Shown here piece after piece: positions 57,114 through 64,000 of a stretch of DNA of 64,000 bases. Under the pieces are notes generated by a model, which saw only the letters and a program-made list of their open reading frames with translations, ran no database searches and was not told the origin of the DNA. Numbering within the stretch: position 1 is the stretch's first letter; every line of letters starts with the position of its first letter. The position numbers and the translations under genes were made by a program. Source of the DNA: Algibacter marinivivus (lineage in GTDB: Bacteria; Bacteroidota; Bacteroidia; Flavobacteriales; Flavobacteriaceae). The stretch covers positions 481,953-545,952 of the forward strand of contig NZ_QFRI01000002.1 of the NCBI RefSeq assembly GCF_003143755.1. Reading direction: 5' to 3'.

Positions 57114-57452
57114 CTAACTAATAAAATTAAGAGATAAAGGGTATGTTGGTGCTTCGCCTCGACTTGCTCGTATAGCATTTACTATAGGAAATACTACTGA
57201 TATAACGCCTAAAATAACAAAACCTAAAAGCCCTAAACCGAATAATAATATTAACGGAATACAGATGAGGCAATACACGATTAAACTTAACTGGAAGTTT
57301 ATAATGTTTTTTCCGTGGGTATCCATTTGATACACTTTTTCTTTTTGTGTAAGCCATAGCACTAGCGGTAATAATAAACTACCAAAACCAGTAACCAAAG
57401 TGATTAACTGACTTAAATGTGTGATGACTAATAATTGATTGTCCTTTCTCAT
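57114..57452 (-). CDS. DUF4870 family membrane protein
   Basis: The 112-residue protein has a short N-terminus, then about three membrane spans: LSQLITLVTGFGSLLLPLVLWL, FQLSLIVYCLICIPLILLFGL and LGFVILGVISVVFPIVNAI. Between them is the conserved MDTHGKNIINFQ, which matches DUF4870 (Tic20-like fold). The gene has its own terminator and lies downstream of an inverted repeat (57475-57495). Function is unknown. Confidence 0.88.
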   Translation of the reverse strand: MRKDNQLLVITHLSQLITLVTGFGSLLLPLVLWLTQKEKVYQMDTHGKNIINFQLSLIVYCLICIPLILLFGLGLLGFVILGVISVVFPIVNAIRASRGEAPTYPLSLNFIS

Positions 57453-57525: not shown

Positions 57526-59565
57526 TTAATTTTGGATGCCGTGATCTTTTAGGATTTTCTGGTAATCTGGATTGTCTTTTAAGTACTTGAAGAATGATTT
57601 ACTTTCTCTGCGAAAAGTTCTGGTTTGCTTATTCCGTATAGTATCTAAATGAAATAAAACACTATCGGTTTCTTTTAAGGCTGAAAAAACGACGGCGAGT
57701 TGATGGCTTTTTTCTGTGTGGTACGCATTTTTTCTGATGGAATCTAGTATTCTGTATCCTGAAAGCGTGTCGCCTACTTTTACATAACAATAGCCCAAGA
57801 AGCGATTGAAAACATTTTTTGTTTTTACAATATCTTCTAAATGCGGGATGGCTTTATCAAACTTATCTTGATCTAAATACAAATTAAAATACGCACGATC
57901 TACAACCAATTGATTACTATTACCGTGTAATTCTTGAATTTTATTGAGTAGTGTTTCTGCTCTTTCATACTCGTAATTCATCATTAACGCTCTAAAATAA
58001 CTGTTGGCTGTTGGAAAGGATAAAGGATCTAATCTATAAGCAATTTCTGCTTGCTCTAACTGTTTTTTAGTTTGATTGGTATACATAAAAAATGTAGAGT
58101 ACTGATGTCTTGCTGTTAAATCGTTGGGAGAAAGTGCTATGGCTTTTTTAAAGGCAGCATCGGCAGCTTCTTGATTGCCTTGAAAATTATTAATAAGTCC
58201 TCTTACGGAGTAGATTCTTGATATTTTATCATTAATTGCTTCTGCTTTTTCCAAATAGCTTGCTGATAATTCTGAGGCTTCTTTAACGCTTCTATCAGAA
58301 TAATAGGTTTCTAAATAAATAGAGTTGGCTATTTCTGCGTAGGCTTCTGCATAATCAGGGTCTAATGCAATAGCTTCTTTATAAAACACAATGCTTTTTG
58401 CTAAACTTTCTTTATTGCGCTTATCGGCTTCATTTCTACCTTCTAAAAACAACTTATAGGCTTCAATATTTTTTGTTGGCACAATGGCTAATCCTTGTTG
58501 CTCTTCAAAAGACAAATTAAGTTCTAGGGCATCAACAATTTCTTCCGAAACCTCGGTTTGTAAACTGAAAATATTAGTTAAGGTTTTATCATAGTTTTCG
58601 GCCCACAAATGCTCGTCTGTAGCAGCATCAATTAATTGTGCCGTAATCCGAATATCATCTCCATACTTACGAATGCTGCCTTCTAATATATACGAAACCC
58701 CCAATTCTTCTGCTATCTCTGGAATGGTTTTTTCGGTGTTTTTGTATTGCATTACCGAAGTTCTAGAAATAACGCGTAACTCTTTTAATTTTGATAATTG
58801 TGTTAGAATATCTTCTGTGACGCCATCTCTAAAAAATTCAGCATCATCATCTGCACTTAAATTATCAAAAGGTAAAACTGCTATAGAGAGGTCGTTAGAA
58901 ATCTCAGTCTTTTTTGCGAAGTTTTGGTATGCTAATAACGCAGATAATAAAACTACAAATGCGATTATTGCTAAAACTAAAGCTTTCTTTTTAGAAATAT
59001 TTTTTTCACTATTATTGGGTAACGCTTTTAATTTACCTTTAACTTCTTCTGGTTTAGGAACCACTAACCCATCATTTGAAATAGCAAATAATGGCATAGC
59101 ATCTTCAACATTTTTTAACTCATAAGCGTCTAAAAAGGTTGTTTTTATATGTTTATGGCTTCTAATTTGATCGTGAACTTTATCTGAAATTAAAATGCTT
59201 CCAGAGACCGCACAAGATTCTATTCTTGAAGCCACATTTACGGCGTCTCCAATAATATCATCTTTAGAATGAATAATATCTCCCACATGAATCCCAATCC
59301 GAACAGGAACTTTAGGGTCTTCAAGAAATGCTTTTTGTAATTCTATGGCGCAATCTACCGCCTCTACGGTACTTTTAAAAGTGCTTAGTGTACCATCGCC
59401 AAAATATTGAATGATTTTACCATTGTATGCCTCGGTAGTCATTTCGAACGTATTTCTATGACGCTCGCGCATTTGTACAGCCTCCTTTTCATTGCTCTGC
59501 ATTAAAGAGGTGTAGCCCTCAATATCAGTAAACATTATGGCTGCTAGTTGGCGGTTGGTTGACAT
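57526..59565 (-). CDS. Class III nucleotide cyclase with membrane span and C-terminal TPR domain
   Basis: From the ATG at 59565 (MSTNRQLAAIMFTDIEGYTSLMQ) the protein is 679 residues. The cyclase domain (about 1-150) has both metal aspartates, Asp14 in FTDIEGYT and Asp57 in YFGDGTLS, and the transition-state Asn110/Arg114 in NVASR. The usual purine-selecting Lys is replaced by Gln53 (KIIQYFGDG), so ATP versus GTP use is open. A membrane span lies at about 195-213, then a TolB/FlgO-like domain (SIAVLPFDNLSADDDAEFF) and TPRs. The cyclase is cytosolic and the TPR part probably periplasmic. It is divergent from a cNMP-binding activator gene. Confidence 0.88.
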   Translation of the reverse strand: MSTNRQLAAIMFTDIEGYTSLMQSNEKEAVQMRERHRNTFEMTTEAYNGKIIQYFGDGTLSTFKSTVEAVDCAIELQKAFLEDPKVPVRIGIHVGDIIHSKDDIIGDAVNVASRIESCAVSGSILISDKVHDQIRSHKHIKTTFLDAYELKNVEDAMPLFAISNDGLVVPKPEEVKGKLKALPNNSEKNISKKKALVLAIIAFVVLLSALLAYQNFAKKTEISNDLSIAVLPFDNLSADDDAEFFRDGVTEDILTQLSKLKELRVISRTSVMQYKNTEKTIPEIAEELGVSYILEGSIRKYGDDIRITAQLIDAATDEHLWAENYDKTLTNIFSLQTEVSEEIVDALELNLSFEEQQGLAIVPTKNIEAYKLFLEGRNEADKRNKESLAKSIVFYKEAIALDPDYAEAYAEIANSIYLETYYSDRSVKEASELSASYLEKAEAINDKISRIYSVRGLINNFQGNQEAADAAFKKAIALSPNDLTARHQYSTFFMYTNQTKKQLEQAEIAYRLDPLSFPTANSYFRALMMNYEYERAETLLNKIQELHGNSNQLVVDRAYFNLYLDQDKFDKAIPHLEDIVKTKNVFNRFLGYCYVKVGDTLSGYRILDSIRKNAYHTEKSHQLAVVFSALKETDSVLFHLDTIRNKQTRTFRRESKSFFKYLKDNPDYQKILKDHGIQN

Positions 59566-59687
59566 TTTGATAATAGCATTAGGTGCCACTAAATTAATTA
59601 AATATCTTTAATAGATAAATTTAAAAATTATTCTACTCAAAATAATTAATATCTTTAGCTTTAAATAACCAACTTATTATTGACGTA

Positions 59688-61520
59688 GTGACCGAAAATA
59701 GTATTCAATTTTTATCTGAAATTCCTTTTTTTTCTGAAGTTTCCAGAGCGTCACTTCAACATTTATCTGAGAACATTACAGAAGAAACCTTTATTAAAAA
59801 CGAAGTGATTTTTGAAAAGAATACCATTGGCAATTCTATGTATGCTGTTTTGGAAGGTTCAGTAAAAGTTCATGATAAAAAACATATTTATGACACTTTA
59901 ACTGAAGGGGATTGTTTTGGTGAATATGCGCTAATTGATAACGAAACACGCTCCGCAACGGTTACTGCCATTGAAAAAACCAAAGTTTTAAAAATAGAAC
60001 GCGACCATTTTCTTGACTTGCTTCAAGATGATAGCGGTTTTGCTCAAGGGATTTTATCGGTGATGATAAAACGGCATCGTGATCTTGATACCATTCAGGA
60101 ACGATTAGCATCTTCAAAAATTGAAATTGAAAATGCTAATGGGAAATTAAGCGGTCTTATTAATGGTGCTATGGACGCTATTATTATGTTTGGTAGCGAT
60201 TTTAAAATTATTCTTACCAATCCTTCTGCCAATAAGTTATTAGAAAATGATGATGTGTTACAACGTAACGTTTTATTCTTTTTTGATGACGAAAGTGCTG
60301 ATATTATTGAAGGTATTGTAAAATCTAAGGATAACAATAAAGCCGTTAATACATACCTTCCAGATGTTGTTAAAGTGATAGGTTCTGGAGATACTGAAAC
60401 TTTAAACGAAGGCACAATTAGCAAATATGGTTCTGATACTAACCCATTTTACACCCTTATTTTAAGAAATATTGAAGAGCGATTAATTGCTGAGGATAAA
60501 ATAAGTTTACTCACAAAACAAACGCAATATTTAGAAGAAGAAATTCAAGAGCTTACCAGCAGTTATGGCATAATAGCTGAAAATAAAAAGATGAAAGAGG
60601 CTCTAAATCTTATTCATCAAGTTGCTAAAACGGATGCTACCGTTTTAATACATGGAGAAACTGGAACTGGAAAGGAGTTGGTTGCTCGTGCAATTCATAA
60701 AGAAAGCAATAGAAATGATAAACCTTTAATCAGGATTAACTGCGGCGCGATTCCTGCGAATCTTATTGAAAGTGAATTGTTTGGACATAAAAAAGGGGCT
60801 TTTACAGGTGCAACAGTAGATAGAAAAGGGCGTTTTTTATTAGCTGATAAAGGCACTATATTTTTAGATGAAATTGGAGAAATGCCTTTGGAGCTTCAGC
60901 CCAAGCTGCTTCGTGTAATTCAAGAAGGCGAGTTTGACCCTGTTGGAAGTTCTGAAACTATTAAAGTGGATGTTCGCATTATTGCCGCTTCTCACAGAAA
61001 TCTTTTTGAATTTTCTAAAGAAGGTAAATTCAGAGAAGATTTGTATTATCGATTGAACGTGTTCCCTATTAATGTGCCCGCTTTAAGAGAACGCGGAAAC
61101 GATATTTGTTTAATAGCAGAGGAAATGATTCAGCAGTTTTCTAAAAAATTAAATAAACAAATTGTGGCTTTATCAGATAACGACAAAGCTTTGTTAAGTA
61201 ACTACGAATGGCCAGGGAATGTTAGAGAGCTTCAAAATTTAATTGAACGTGCCGTTATTGTATCGCAAAACGGAACAATTAATTGGCAAGCTATTATTCC
61301 TAATAATACTGATATTACTGAAATTCAAGAAGAAGTATCTCAAGAAAAAATACTAACCTCAAAAGAGTTAGTGGCTTTGGAAAAAGAAAATATCCTGAAA
61401 GCATTAAGGCAAACCAAATGGAAAATATCTGGTGCTAATGGTGCCGCTTCTTTATTAGACTTACCTCCTACTACATTGGCCTCTAGAATTAAGGCGCTGA
61501 AAATAGAACGTCCGATTTAA
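59688..61520 (+). CDS. cNMP-binding, PAS-containing sigma-54-dependent activator
   Basis: The 610-residue protein starts at GTG 59688. Domains: cyclic-nucleotide-binding (about 10-130; [19 protein letters not shown], with Glu79 and Arg88 of the phosphate cassette), PAS (150-270), coiled coil (268-300), AAA+ (300-530) with [14 protein letters not shown] (the sigma-54 contact loop) and IFLDEIGEM, and a Fis-type helix-turn-helix (565-608, [26 protein letters not shown]). Having an intact cNMP site, PAS and GAFTGA in one chain suggests direct control of sigma-54 promoters by the nucleotide from the cyclase encoded divergently 122 bases away. A sigma-54-type promoter lies directly downstream. Confidence 0.92.
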
Positions 61521-61547
61521 AACTTACGACATTTCATAAATATAATC

Positions 61548-61577
61548 ACGATATTTCGTTAATATTCGAATTATCGT
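61548..61577. promoter_or_regulatory. Candidate upstream activator site (inverted repeat)
   Basis: ACGATATTTCG, an 8-base spacer, then CGAATTATCGT: 10 of 11 positions pair. It is centred about 100 bases upstream of the expected start of transcription from the GG-N10-GC promoter. That distance is typical for a sigma-54 activator site. It is AT-rich without a T run, so it is a poor terminator for the preceding gene. Confidence 0.5.
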
Positions 61578-61636
61578 AACACTTAATTGCGTCTAAAAAT
61601 CATGTAATTATTTGATTTTCAATTGATTAAAATGTT

Positions 61637-61652
61637 TGGCATGCCATTAGCA
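61637..61652 (+). promoter_or_regulatory. Sigma-54-type -24/-12 promoter of the OsmC gene
   Basis: TTGGCATGCCATTAGCA has GG (61638-61639), ten bases, and GC (61650-61651). This is the sigma-54 spacing. TTGGCA matches the -24 box well (YTGGCACG); TAGCA stands for the -12 TTGCA with one mismatch. Expected transcription start is near 61663, 37 bases before the OsmC ATG. Confidence 0.65.
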
Positions 61653-61699
61653 TAATACCAACCAAACAATAATGTTTAACAATTTAAAAATTAGAAAAA

Positions 61700-62254
61700 A
61701 TGATTACAACAGCAAATGTAAAAAACGGAGTAAACGTAGATCAATTAGTTGAAACTATCAACCACATTCAAGAGCAGCCAGAATTAGCAAAATTTGAATT
61801 CAGAGCTAAAAACAACTGGATTGATGGCGGACATTGTGTATCTAGTATCAAAAGTTTTTATGGTGCAGGACAAGAAGATTCTACTCGTGAAGAAACATTC
61901 ACAATGGAATGTAGCCACCCACAAGTATTATTAGGAGCTGATGAAGCTGCTACACCACCAGAGGTATTATTACACGCATTAAGCTCATGCTTAACTGGAG
62001 CTATGGTTTATCATGCAGCAGCTAACGGCGTTGATATTGAAGGTGCAGAATCTAGCATCCAAGGTAATGCTGATTTACACGGATTCTTAGGATTAGATCC
62101 TGAAGTACGTATGGGATTTGACGGTATCAAATTCAGATTAAATGTAAAATCTGATGCCACTGCAGAACAATTAGAAAACTTTGCTAAGTTCTCTCCTGTA
62201 TTTGACATGATTAGCAACCCTACTCCAATTTCAATTGAAATTGTAAAGCAGTAG
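61700..62254 (+). CDS. OsmC family protein (second copy)
   Basis: The 184-residue protein has the OsmC core: EVLLHALSSCLTGAMVYHAAANGVDIE with the conserved Cys, and a C-terminal domain KFSPVFDMISNPTPISIEIV. It lacks the second conserved Cys of Ohr/OsmC (position held by SPVFD), so a peroxidase role with a Cys pair is doubtful. It is the first gene after the sigma-54 activator and has a sigma-54 promoter. A strong terminator separates it from nifJ. Confidence 0.88.
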   Translation: MITTANVKNGVNVDQLVETINHIQEQPELAKFEFRAKNNWIDGGHCVSSIKSFYGAGQEDSTREETFTMECSHPQVLLGADEAATPPEVLLHALSSCLTGAMVYHAAANGVDIEGAESSIQGNADLHGFLGLDPEVRMGFDGIKFRLNVKSDATAEQLENFAKFSPVFDMISNPTPISIEIVKQ

Positions 62255-62340: not shown

Positions 62341-64000
62341 ATGAAAACTTCAACTCACAGCATCATAAACGCAAATCAAGCCGTTGCACAAATTGCTTAT
62401 AAAACTAATGAGGTATTCCCCATTTACCCCATTACACCAGCCTCAGAAATGAGTGAACTAGTTGAGCAATGGCATGCAGAACAAAAGTCAAATGCTTTTG
62501 GAAGCTCGACTTCTGTTTTTCAAATGCAAAGTGAAGCTGGTGTTGCAGGCGCAATGCATGGTGCGTTACAAACAGGAAGTTTATCATCAACATTTACAGC
62601 ATCACAAGGGTTATTATTGATGCTGCCAAATATGTACAAAATTGCTGGAGAACTTACTCCAAATGTTATTCATGTAGCTACAAGAAGTATAGCCACTCAC
62701 GCCCTATCCATTTTTGGAGATCATAGCGATATTATGGCGGTTCGTCAATCAGGTTATGCCATGTTAGGAAGTGCATCGGTTCAAGAAGCTCACGATTTTG
62801 CTTTAATTTCTCAAGCGGCTTCATTGGAATCTTCAATTCCGTTTGTGCACTTTTTTGATGGCTTTAGAACCTCTCACGAAATCAATACAATTGAATTAAT
62901 TCCAGACGACGTTATTCAGTCCTTAATAAATCAAAATAAAATAAAAGTTCATAGAAATAGAGCTTTAAACCCTAACAAACCTGTTTTAAGAGGAACTTCT
63001 CAAGGTGCAGATGTGTTTTTTCAAAGTAGAGAAGCCATAAATCCTTTTTATGATATGTGTCCAGATATTGTGCAAAGTACCATGGATAATTTTGCTTTAC
63101 TAACAGGAAGACACTATAAGCTTTTTGATTATGCTGGACACCCTGAAGCTGAACACATTATTATTTCAATGGCATCTTCAACAGAAACTATTGAAACAAC
63201 CATCAATCAACTTAACGAAAAAGGCAAAAAATACGGGCTTATAAAAGTTAGATTATTCAGACCTTTTAGCACAAAACATTTAGTTCAGGCATTACCAAAA
63301 TCGGTTAAATCAATTGCCGTTTTAGATAGGACTAAAGAACCAGGTTCTAGCGGAGAACCTTTGTATTTAGATGTGCTTCAATCTATTTCTGAAGCTTTTC
63401 AAAATAACAAACTATCCACTTTTCCAAAAATAGTTGGTGGACGTTATGGCTTGTCTTCAAAAGAATTTACACCATCTATGGTTAATCCTATTTTCAATAA
63501 TCTAAAAGAAGATCAACCTAAAAACAATTTCACTATTGGCATTAATGATGATGTAAAAAATTTAAGCTTAGATTTTTCAGAAGTTATCAAAATAAAAAAT
63601 AACTTGTACGAAGCTATTTTCTATCAAGAAAAAACGGAACATGATAGTTTTTCAAATACTTTGAAACTTATTGCCAAAAAAGAAAACACCTTCGTTCAAG
63701 GCTACACACAATGTGATTATAAAAAATCAAACTCATATAATACGGCTCATTTAAGAATTGGAAGCACACCAATTAAAGCGCCATACTTAATAGAAGAAGC
63801 TGATTTTATTGGCTGTCAAAATGTAAACTTCACTTTAAACGACAACACATTACACAAATTAAAATTTAAGGGAACACTTTTAATTAACACTTCGCAAACG
63901 TCTAAAGCATTTTGGCAGTCGCTATCGGTTAAGAATCAAAAGTTAATCAATGAAAAACAAATCAACGTATTTGTTGTAAACATTGAAGAATTAAAAGCAA
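62341..64000 (+). CDS. nifJ: Pyruvate:ferredoxin (flavodoxin) oxidoreductase, N-terminal part
   Basis: The ATG at 62341 opens a frame that runs off the right edge with 553 residues and no stop. It starts ANQAVAQIAYKTNEVFPIYPITPASEMSELVEQW, with QSEAGVAGAMHGALQTG, FTASQGLLLMLPNMYKIAGE and ATRSIATHALSIFGDHSDIM following, which is the pyrimidine-binding domain of NifJ. Residues beyond about 260 match domain II (LFDYAGHPEAEHIIISMAS) and domain III begins near 430. The enzyme converts pyruvate and CoA to acetyl-CoA, CO2 and reduced ferredoxin, and is oxygen-sensitive in many organisms. The C-terminal thiamine and FeS domains lie outside the window. Confidence 0.92.
   Translation, partial: MKTSTHSIINANQAVAQIAYKTNEVFPIYPITPASEMSELVEQWHAEQKSNAFGSSTSVFQMQSEAGVAGAMHGALQTGSLSSTFTASQGLLLMLPNMYKIAGELTPNVIHVATRSIATHALSIFGDHSDIMAVRQSGYAMLGSASVQEAHDFALISQAASLESSIPFVHFFDGFRTSHEINTIELIPDDVIQSLINQNKIKVHRNRALNPNKPVLRGTSQGADVFFQSREAINPFYDMCPDIVQSTMDNFALLTGRHYKLFDYAGHPEAEHIIISMASSTETIETTINQLNEKGKKYGLIKVRLFRPFSTKHLVQALPKSVKSIAVLDRTKEPGSSGEPLYLDVLQSISEAFQNNKLSTFPKIVGGRYGLSSKEFTPSMVNPIFNNLKEDQPKNNFTIGINDDVKNLSLDFSEVIKIKNNLYEAIFYQEKTEHDSFSNTLKLIAKKENTFVQGYTQCDYKKSNSYNTAHLRIGSTPIKAPYLIEEADFIGCQNVNFTLNDNTLHKLKFKGTLLINTSQTSKAFWQSLSVKNQKLINEKQINVFVVNIEELKA

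What the first reader, a model, noticed from the sequence alone, without database searches (positions are those of the whole stretch)
57526..62254. Compact cyclic-nucleotide/sigma-54 circuit: cyclase, cNMP-PAS-AAA+ activator, upstream site, sigma-54 promoter, OsmC
A class III cyclase (57526-59565) is divergent from an activator with an intact cNMP cassette (Glu79, Arg88), PAS and GAFTGA (59688-61520). Just past the activator lie an inverted repeat (61548-61577) and a GG-N10-GC promoter (61638-61651) in front of osmC. Order, distances and domain logic all fit one pathway from a periplasmic TPR-coupled signal, through a cyclic nucleotide, to sigma-54 transcription. Direct nucleotide control of a sigma-54 activator is rare among well-studied systems, and cyclic-nucleotide signalling in flavobacteria is little described.
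Basis: partly seen in the sequence, partly recalled or inferred. Interest (0 to 1): 0.78.

Follow-up and report, generated by a model that had tools for sequence, protein, structure and literature searches.

The report
Cyclic-nucleotide switch for sigma-54 transcription
A bacterial gene switch in which an enzyme that should make a small messenger nucleotide sits beside a sigma-54 activator built to bind such a messenger, with three matching DNA sites and a promoter in front of redox genes, is kept intact across many related bacteria and looks like a new way of wiring sigma-54 transcription.

Summary
The features are real, and comparison strengthens them. The activator (59688-61520: cNMP-binding, weak PAS, AAA+, Fis-type HTH) has full-length orthologues in 31 of 299 sampled same-family genomes; all 31 carry this osmC, against 1 of the other 268. 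Upstream of osmC all 31 have three ACGA-N4-TCGT-like palindromes (22+18 bp apart in 28, 21+18 in 3) and a TGGCA sigma-54 promoter 69-70 bp beyond the third. The array follows osmC where the activator lies elsewhere, and is missing in the one genome with osmC but no activator. The operon continues into pyruvate:ferredoxin oxidoreductase. The nucleotide link is supported too: the pocket (FGE...RSA) is invariant; all 31 genomes encode a class III cyclase (136 of 268 others); 29 of 31 have one within 7 kb of activator or osmC, of two main architectures that replace each other. Some activators outside the family, with GAF or PAS instead, have the same operator, so the cNMP domain looks like a sensor swap. 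Nucleotide binding, cyclase activity (Gln at the usual substrate Lys), the nucleotide's identity and the sign of control are untested. Target genes in relatives hint at sulfur/redox stress. New variant of a known kind.

The parts
57526..59565 (-). Type A class III nucleotide cyclase, 679 aa from the ATG: N-terminal cyclase domain, one TM segment, C-terminal part with TPRs inferred periplasmic
   Evidence: Pfam; hydropathy; relatives; only PF00211 match in its genome at E<=1e-5
59089..59547 (-). Cyclase catalytic domain: FTDIEGY and GDG metal Asp, D-I-I-G-D-x-V-N-x-A-S-R; Gln in place of the usual substrate Lys
58927..58983 (-). Single transmembrane segment of the cyclase
   Evidence: Kyte-Doolittle
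59688..61520 (+). Sigma-54 activator (bEBP), 610 aa: cNMP-binding, PAS-like, AAA+ with GAFTGA, Fis-type HTH
59787..60032 (+). Cyclic nucleotide-binding domain, residues 34-115
   Evidence: PF00027 E 1.9e-21; nearest solved relatives are cGMP- and cAMP-dependent protein kinase domains
59916..59957 (+). Phosphate-binding cassette [15 protein letters not shown]77, G78, E79, R88, S89, A90 invariant in 30 of 30 aligned orthologues and present in the 31st (G191)
60177..60467 (+). PAS-like region, weak match
   Evidence: PF13426 6.5e-4, below cut-off; 15 of 30 orthologues match at E<=1e-3
60570..61070 (+). AAA+ sigma-54 interaction domain with Walker A and GAFTGA
   Evidence: PF00158 3e-74
61374..61496 (+). 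Fis-type helix-turn-helix
   Evidence: PF02954 3.3e-4, slightly under cut-off
61526..61537 (+). Upstream activator site 1, ACGACATTTCAT
61548..61559 (+). Upstream activator site 2, ACGATATTTCGT
61566..61577 (+). Upstream activator site 3, TCGAATTATCGT
61636..61652 (+). Sigma-54 promoter TTGGCATGCCATTAGCA, 70 bp from the start of site 3
61700..62254 (+). osmC-family gene, 184 aa
   Evidence: PF02566 2e-11
62341..63999 (+). Pyruvate:ferredoxin (flavodoxin) oxidoreductase, 5' part; full gene 1159 aa beyond the window
   Evidence: TIGR02176 750.7 bits, below its cut-off of 911, presumably because the gene is cut here; full gene in L185

Best explanation
This is a self-contained second-messenger circuit. 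A membrane class III cyclase, with its sensory part probably in the periplasm, makes a 3',5'-cyclic nucleotide. The nucleotide binds the N-terminal CAP-type domain of the divergently encoded sigma-54 activator. The ligand-bound activator assembles, probably as three dimers (a hexamer), on three 12-bp palindromes that begin at the sixth base after its own stop codon, and remodels sigma-54 RNA polymerase at the TTGGCAT promoter 70 bp beyond the third site, switching on osmC and pyruvate:ferredoxin oxidoreductase. Shown: gene and domain content; array, promoter and geometry conserved in 31 of 31 relatives; invariance of the nucleotide pocket; a class III cyclase in all 31 genomes, linked in 29. 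Inferred: nucleotide binding and the cyclase's product, that binding activates rather than represses, hexamer assembly, co-transcription of PFOR, the periplasmic input, and a sulfur/redox-stress role.
For: 31 of 299 family genomes have a full-length activator; this osmC at E<=1e-80 in 31/31 against 1/268 (Fisher 2e-41). The array is in 31/31: spacing 22+18 in 28, 21+18 in 3 (21-23 and 17-19 were allowed), distance to the promoter 70 bp in 28 and 69 in 3 (the scan required GG, and then found TGGCA in 31, G at -12 in 31, GC in 25, GT in 6). Shuffles reach 16 at most. It travels with osmC in G222 and G011 (osmC elsewhere) and G240 and G059 (two ORFs between), and is absent in G173, with osmC-PFOR but no activator. 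One RpoN. Pocket invariant. Class III cyclase in 31/31 against 136/268 (p 4e-9); type A at E<=1e-140 in 18/31 against 2/268 (p 1e-18). A cyclase lies within 7 kb of activator or osmC in 29/31; density predicts about 1.5% per genome within 8 kb (assuming 4.05 Mb). The 13 genomes without type A all have a cyclase in an open frame of 1126-1178 aa, type B, within 8 kb in 12; five scanned are TPR-kinase-receiver-cyclase proteins. On the activator tree the label 'type A only' needs 7 changes, at least 3 forced by supported branches. Three enhancer sites are essential for NorR (passages of PMC2941729). A -24/-12 element contributes, by mutagenesis, to a Flavobacterium psychrophilum promoter (passages of PMC9723704).
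Against: No binding or enzyme data. The cyclase substrate Lys is Gln in all 18 type A rows examined and apparently in the one type B catalytic domain read, so activity and substrate are open. In G145 and G148 the cyclase is on another contig than the activator and osmC. G005 and G024 have a type A cyclase but no activator. The genomes are related and much of the tree is unresolved (17 of 32 inner branches open), so Fisher values overstate independence. PAS and HTH matches are weak. Relatives with GAF, PAS or unrecognised N-termini have the same kind of array, so the operator does not by itself imply a cyclic nucleotide.
Confidence: 0.77

Rival explanations
1. The activator does control osmC-PFOR through sigma-54, but its trigger is read by the PAS region or another redox input; the cNMP domain is a structural or redundant part and the cyclases serve other targets.
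For: Activators with GAF/PAS or unrecognised N-termini and no cNMP domain have the same kind of operator; the cyclase lacks the usual substrate Lys.
Against: The nucleotide pocket is invariant in 31 orthologues down to 56% identity; cyclases of changing architecture stay next to the module.
Confidence: 0.14
2. The sign is reversed: the nucleotide-bound cNMP domain keeps the AAA+ ring off, as the GAF domain does in NorR before its signal arrives, and a fall in nucleotide switches on osmC. This shares everything else with the best explanation.
For: N-terminal domains can be repressive; in NorR the GAF domain represses the ATPase (start of abstract and passages of PMC2941729).
Against: Nothing here tells the sign; CAP-type domains are usually activated by ligand (recalled).
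Confidence: 0.2
3. The cyclase neighbourhood is accidental synteny and the circuit is only activator, operator, osmC and PFOR.
For: In two of 31 genomes the cyclase is unlinked; two of 268 have the type A cyclase alone.
Against: Replacement by a differently built cyclase, mostly at the other end of the operon; 29 of 31 linked against about 1.5% expected; in its own genome this is the only class III cyclase found.
Confidence: 0.07

Closest known systems
NorR-norVW of Escherichia coli (three-enhancer sigma-54 system)
   Same: N-terminal ligand domain, AAA+ and HTH; [quoted passage not shown]
   Different: NorR has an NO-sensing GAF domain; here a cNMP domain and linked cyclases; score against the NorR model is below its cut-off (354.3 of 476 bits); different target genes
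CRP (CAP) cAMP-cyclase systems
   Same: CAP-type nucleotide-binding domain with the conserved Glu/Arg cassette controlling transcription (CRP side recalled)
   Different: CRP acts with sigma-70-type polymerase through its own winged HTH (recalled); here the domain sits on an ATP-dependent sigma-54 activator with a Fis-type HTH
GAF-PAS-AAA+ activator next to osmC in a Desulfobulbaceae MAG (L042) and second copy in G154 (L252)
   Same: Homologous AAA+ part, osmC as neighbour; in L042 the same kind of triple operator, spaced 23+17
   Different: GAF (weak in L252) in place of the cNMP domain; whether these have linked cyclases was not checked
Nucleotide-responsive sigma-54 activators FleQ and VpsR
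   Same: AAA+ activators that respond to a nucleotide second messenger (recalled)
   Different: They bind c-di-GMP and have no CAP-type domain (recalled)

Membership tests
Sigma-54 activator (bEBP) | AAA+ domain with Walker A and GAFTGA | tested here: met
   PF00158 E 3e-74; GETGTGKE (323-330) and GAFTGA (370-375) invariant in 30 of 30
Sigma-54 activator (bEBP) | C-terminal HTH | tested here: met
   PF02954, window 20.8 bits against cut-off 22; 24 of 30 orthologues match at E<=1e-3
Sigma-54 activator (bEBP) | Genome encodes RpoN | tested here: met
   one PF04552 match, E 2e-52
Sigma-54 activator (bEBP) | Upstream sites plus -24/-12 promoter at a target | tested here: met
   sequence present and conserved in 31 of 31; binding not tested
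CAP-type cyclic nucleotide-binding domain | PF00027 family | tested here: met
   window 1.9e-21; 30 of 30 aligned orthologues
CAP-type cyclic nucleotide-binding domain | Phosphate-binding cassette Glu and Arg | tested here: met
   E79, R88 invariant in 30 of 30, also in G191
CAP-type cyclic nucleotide-binding domain | Binds cAMP or cGMP | not testable with these tools
Class III nucleotide cyclase | Two metal-binding Asp and transition-state Asn/Arg | tested here: met
   18 of 18 type A rows; roles of the positions recalled, aligned with solved cyclases
Class III nucleotide cyclase | Substrate-specifying Lys/Asp pair of adenylate cyclases | tested here: not met
   Gln/Asp in all 18. Noncanonical pairs are known in active cyclases (recalled), so this lowers certainty on activity and substrate
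CRP/FNR transcription factor | CRP-type HTH after the nucleotide domain | tested here: not met
   no CRP-type HTH among Pfam matches at E<=1e-3; PAS-like region, AAA+ and Fis-type HTH follow
NorR | NorR equivalog score and GAF domain | tested here: not met
   354.3 bits against 476; no GAF match
OsmC family | PF02566 over cut-off | tested here: met
   44.6 against 27.5 bits
OsmC/Ohr peroxidase | Redox-active Cys pair | not tested
   not examined across orthologues

The most novel reading that the evidence does not exclude
A sigma-54 activator gated directly by a classical 3',5'-cyclic nucleotide: one lineage replaced the GAF/PAS-type sensor of an older osmC-controlling activator by a CAP-type domain while keeping its triple operator, and the locus then attracted cyclases of several architectures (TPR membrane cyclase, TPR-histidine kinase-receiver-cyclase, integral-membrane form, ferredoxin-cyclase-globin), turning one promoter into a hub where different stress inputs converge through one private messenger.
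Probability: 0.5. Interest if true: 0.85.

Novelty: new variant of a known kind. Interest (0 to 1): 0.73.

Why it matters
Sigma-54 activators are sorted by input domain; a 2020 review's table lists response-regulator, PRD, PAS, V4R, ACT, GAF or no input domain, and no cyclic-nucleotide domain (passages of PMC7175178). A conserved operon in which a CAP-type domain sits on the AAA+ motor, with its own cyclase and a predicted operator, would join two signalling logics usually kept apart. For this group of bacteria, where one paper search on cAMP, Crp, adenylate cyclase and flavobacteria listed five papers, none on that subject by title, it offers a testable cyclic-nucleotide pathway. The swaps of cyclase partner make the dependence directly testable.

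Tried and rejected
Reading 61548-61577 as one inverted repeat: rejected, because in relatives the unit is a 12-bp palindrome and three copies are spaced 22+18 or 21+18.

A large regulon in the window's genome: not supported; only one array pair there at up to 2 mismatches and spacing 22. In relatives, extra pair hits occur in 7 of 31 activator genomes, close to the background of 6 of 31 genomes without the activator. Four were followed, in G240, G148, G169 and G219: all four have a third site and TGGCA 68-70 bp from it, three with GC at -12 (G219 has GA). Those in G044, G077 and G194 were not inspected. The same pattern misses the home array in G154, G191 and G219, whose spacing is 21.

The class-wide sample added no cNMP-type activator outside the family. 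Plasmids held no match for the activator. A motif script failed half-way and was replaced; one translation was in the wrong frame.

Paper searches for a cyclic-nucleotide-controlled sigma-54 activator (none; 7 listed; 10 of 128 listed, none of the 10 with the phrase cyclic nucleotide binding domain; 1, which only lists both Pfam families in a table) and for osmC with PFOR or persulfide and sigma-54 (none; 12 of 19 listed) showed none that describes this circuit, judged from listings. Most subscription papers are not in that library.
Full report
What is there. The activator has a cyclic nucleotide-binding domain, a weak PAS-like region, a strong sigma-54 AAA+ domain with GAFTGA and a Fis-type helix-turn-helix. 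The genome has one RpoN and three PF00158 matches over 200 bits among ten.

Conservation of the module. In a sample of 299 genomes of the same family, 34 matched the activator at E<=1e-100; three (G083, G200, G220) match only the AAA+ region and what follows, leaving 31 full-length orthologues of 56-100% identity, the window's own included. The osmC of the window was found at E<=1e-80 in exactly these 31 and in G173; five further genomes and a second copy in G154 match at 1e-40 to 1e-50. osmC lies within 0.6 kb downstream of the activator in 26 of the 30 fetched loci and in G191; in G240 and G059 two ORFs lie between, in G222 it is about 86 kb away and in G011 on another contig. A PFOR gene follows osmC within 0.9 kb in 30 of 31 (not G219) and in G173; 40 other genomes, and G219, have only a more distant PFOR without this context.

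Operator and promoter. Past the activator's stop codon, or wherever osmC lies, all 31 genomes hold three palindromes resembling ACGA-N4-TCGT in front of osmC. The promoter scan required GG; at the best match TGGCA is present in 31, G at -12 in 31, GC in 25 and GT in 6. Array scores are 19-24 of 24; 186 dinucleotide shuffles reached 16 at most. G173, which keeps osmC-PFOR without the activator, scores 12 and its best GG match is a poor one 330 bp away; its upstream region holds TACATTTG, resembling the TAnnTTTG box reported for the flavobacterial primary sigma factor (box from passages of PMC9723704). This is the strongest evidence that activator and array belong together. In the window's genome no other pair of sites was found at up to 2 mismatches.

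The cyclic nucleotide link. F77, G78, E79, R88, S89 and A90 are invariant in 30 of 30 aligned orthologues, and G191 has FGEYSLIDKEPRSA. The nearest solved relatives of the domain are nucleotide-binding domains of cGMP- and cAMP-dependent protein kinases; which nucleotide is bound cannot be told. Class III cyclases (PF00211) occur in 31 of 31 activator genomes and 136 of 268 others at E<=1e-6. The window-type cyclase (type A, E<=1e-140) occurs in 18 of 31 and 2 of 268. The other 13 each have a cyclase in an open frame of 1126-1178 aa, type B; five that I scanned consist of TPRs, HisKA, HATPase, receiver and cyclase domains, and four checked by hydropathy have one strong transmembrane segment at about residue 405-443. 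Four genomes have both types. Nearest distances from a cyclase to the activator or osmC are under 7 kb in 29 of 31 (in G011 and G222 measured to osmC). With 102 cyclase matches in 31 genomes and an assumed 4.05 Mb each, about 1.5% would be expected per genome within 8 kb. On a tree of the 31 activators with four outgroups lacking the cNMP domain, the label type A only (and likewise type B only) needs 7 gains or losses, at least 3 forced by well-supported branches; 17 of 32 inner branches are unresolved and some long branches meet. Further cyclases near the module are a membrane form with a sub-threshold MASE6 match in G240, a 501-aa form in G018 and a ferredoxin-cyclase-globin fusion in G006. 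In the window's own genome the neighbour is the only PF00211 match at E<=1e-5.

Weak points. All 18 type A catalytic domains examined keep the metal and transition-state residues but have Gln where most adenylate cyclases have Lys (a 19th row printed there, L144, is a different cyclase with Lys). The one type B domain I read, L197, also has Gln there as far as I can align it by eye. Noncanonical pairs are known in active enzymes (recalled), so this leaves activity and substrate open. Two activator genomes (G145, G148) have their A or B cyclase on another contig, two genomes without the activator have type A. Genomes are related, so the p-values are only indicative.

Origin of the sensor. In a class-wide sample of 375 genomes, four had a match at E<=1e-120, and only the window's genome and G154, both of the same family, had the full-length form. 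More distant relatives in a Desulfobulbaceae MAG (L042: GAF and PAS), in G154 (second copy, L252: PAS, weak GAF), in G420 (L251: PAS) and G510 (L250: nothing recognised) lack a cNMP match. L042, L252 and L251 stand next to an osmC; no other of 83 loci did. Arrays scoring 19 or more occur in 4 of the 83 loci and in none of five shuffles of all 83 (best 18). In L042 the array (23+17) lies upstream of osmC, with TGGCAC 83 bp after the start of site 3 but a poor -12 element. A Woeseia MAG (L043) with a two-PAS activator has 22+17 and TGGCACGATCTATGCA 60 bp after the start of site 3. L250 (19) and L059 (20, running up to and into the activator gene) are weaker cases. The simplest reading is that operator and DNA-binding part are old and the cNMP domain is a later replacement; this is inference.

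What it is for. Array-plus-promoter sites elsewhere in four relatives precede redoxins (G240, G219), a methyltransferase-redoxin gene set that also holds a homocysteine S-methyltransferase and a DsrE-like gene (G148), and a TauE/SafE exporter (G169). In G034 PFOR is followed by a SoxA/TsdA-like cytochrome c, a protein with weak similarity to a thiosulfate dehydrogenase (24.8 bits, cut-off 300) and a DsrE-like protein; G006 has the same by resemblance of the sequences. In G120 a ferritin-like (Dps-like by eye) and an OxyR-like gene (214 bits, cut-off 329) lie upstream of the activator; similar genes are seen by eye in G018, G231, G211 and G217. Together these suggest sulfur or oxidative stress, an inference.

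Verdict. Control of osmC-PFOR by this activator through sigma-54 is, for a purely computational case, very well supported. Control by a cyclic nucleotide from the linked cyclase is likely but biochemically unproven. I found no paper describing it (searches and their limits under Tried and rejected); a 2020 review's table of activators lists no cyclic-nucleotide input domain (passages), and a 2011 survey has no occurrence of cNMP in its main text (passages of PMC3162934). I therefore call it a new variant of a known kind.

Noticed in passing
L239:3199-4536 (G006): A 445-aa ferredoxin (Fer2)-cyclase-globin fusion beside the module: an unusual cyclase architecture, possibly redox or gas sensing.
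   Followed up: partly
L240:12908-15059 (G034), L239:4717-6863 (G006), L243:9911-12001 (G005), L244:2873-5032 (G024): A three-gene set (SoxA/TsdA-like cytochrome c, protein of weak or no known family, DsrE-like) after PFOR in G034 and G006, and beside the type A cyclase in G005 and G024, which lack the activator (domains scanned in G034 and G024).
   Followed up: partly
L190 (G173), region before osmC: osmC-PFOR without the activator has neither array nor sigma-54 promoter and shows a TACATTTG primary-sigma-like box.
   Followed up: partly
L043:5067 and L043:9215-11519 (Woeseia MAG): Same kind of triple operator beside a two-PAS sigma-54 activator, with LysR-type (CysB-like by eye) and PLP-dependent (cysteine-synthase-like by eye) genes nearby.
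   Followed up: partly
L031 (G011), end of contig C25: A second array plus sigma-54 promoter in front of a short ORF of about 40 aa, followed by what looks by eye like a transposase gene on the other strand.
   Followed up: no
57114-57452: The DUF4870 gene next to the cyclase stays beside the module in several relatives, also where the type A cyclase is missing (G019, G017, G145); unexplained.
   Followed up: no
L059:5353 (Desulfobacterales MAG): An array-like run (score 20) directly in front of a sigma-54 activator gene, possibly autoregulation.
   Followed up: no
34176 (+ strand): A weak array-like run (score 17) elsewhere in the window; 17 is within what shuffles of other loci give.
   Followed up: no
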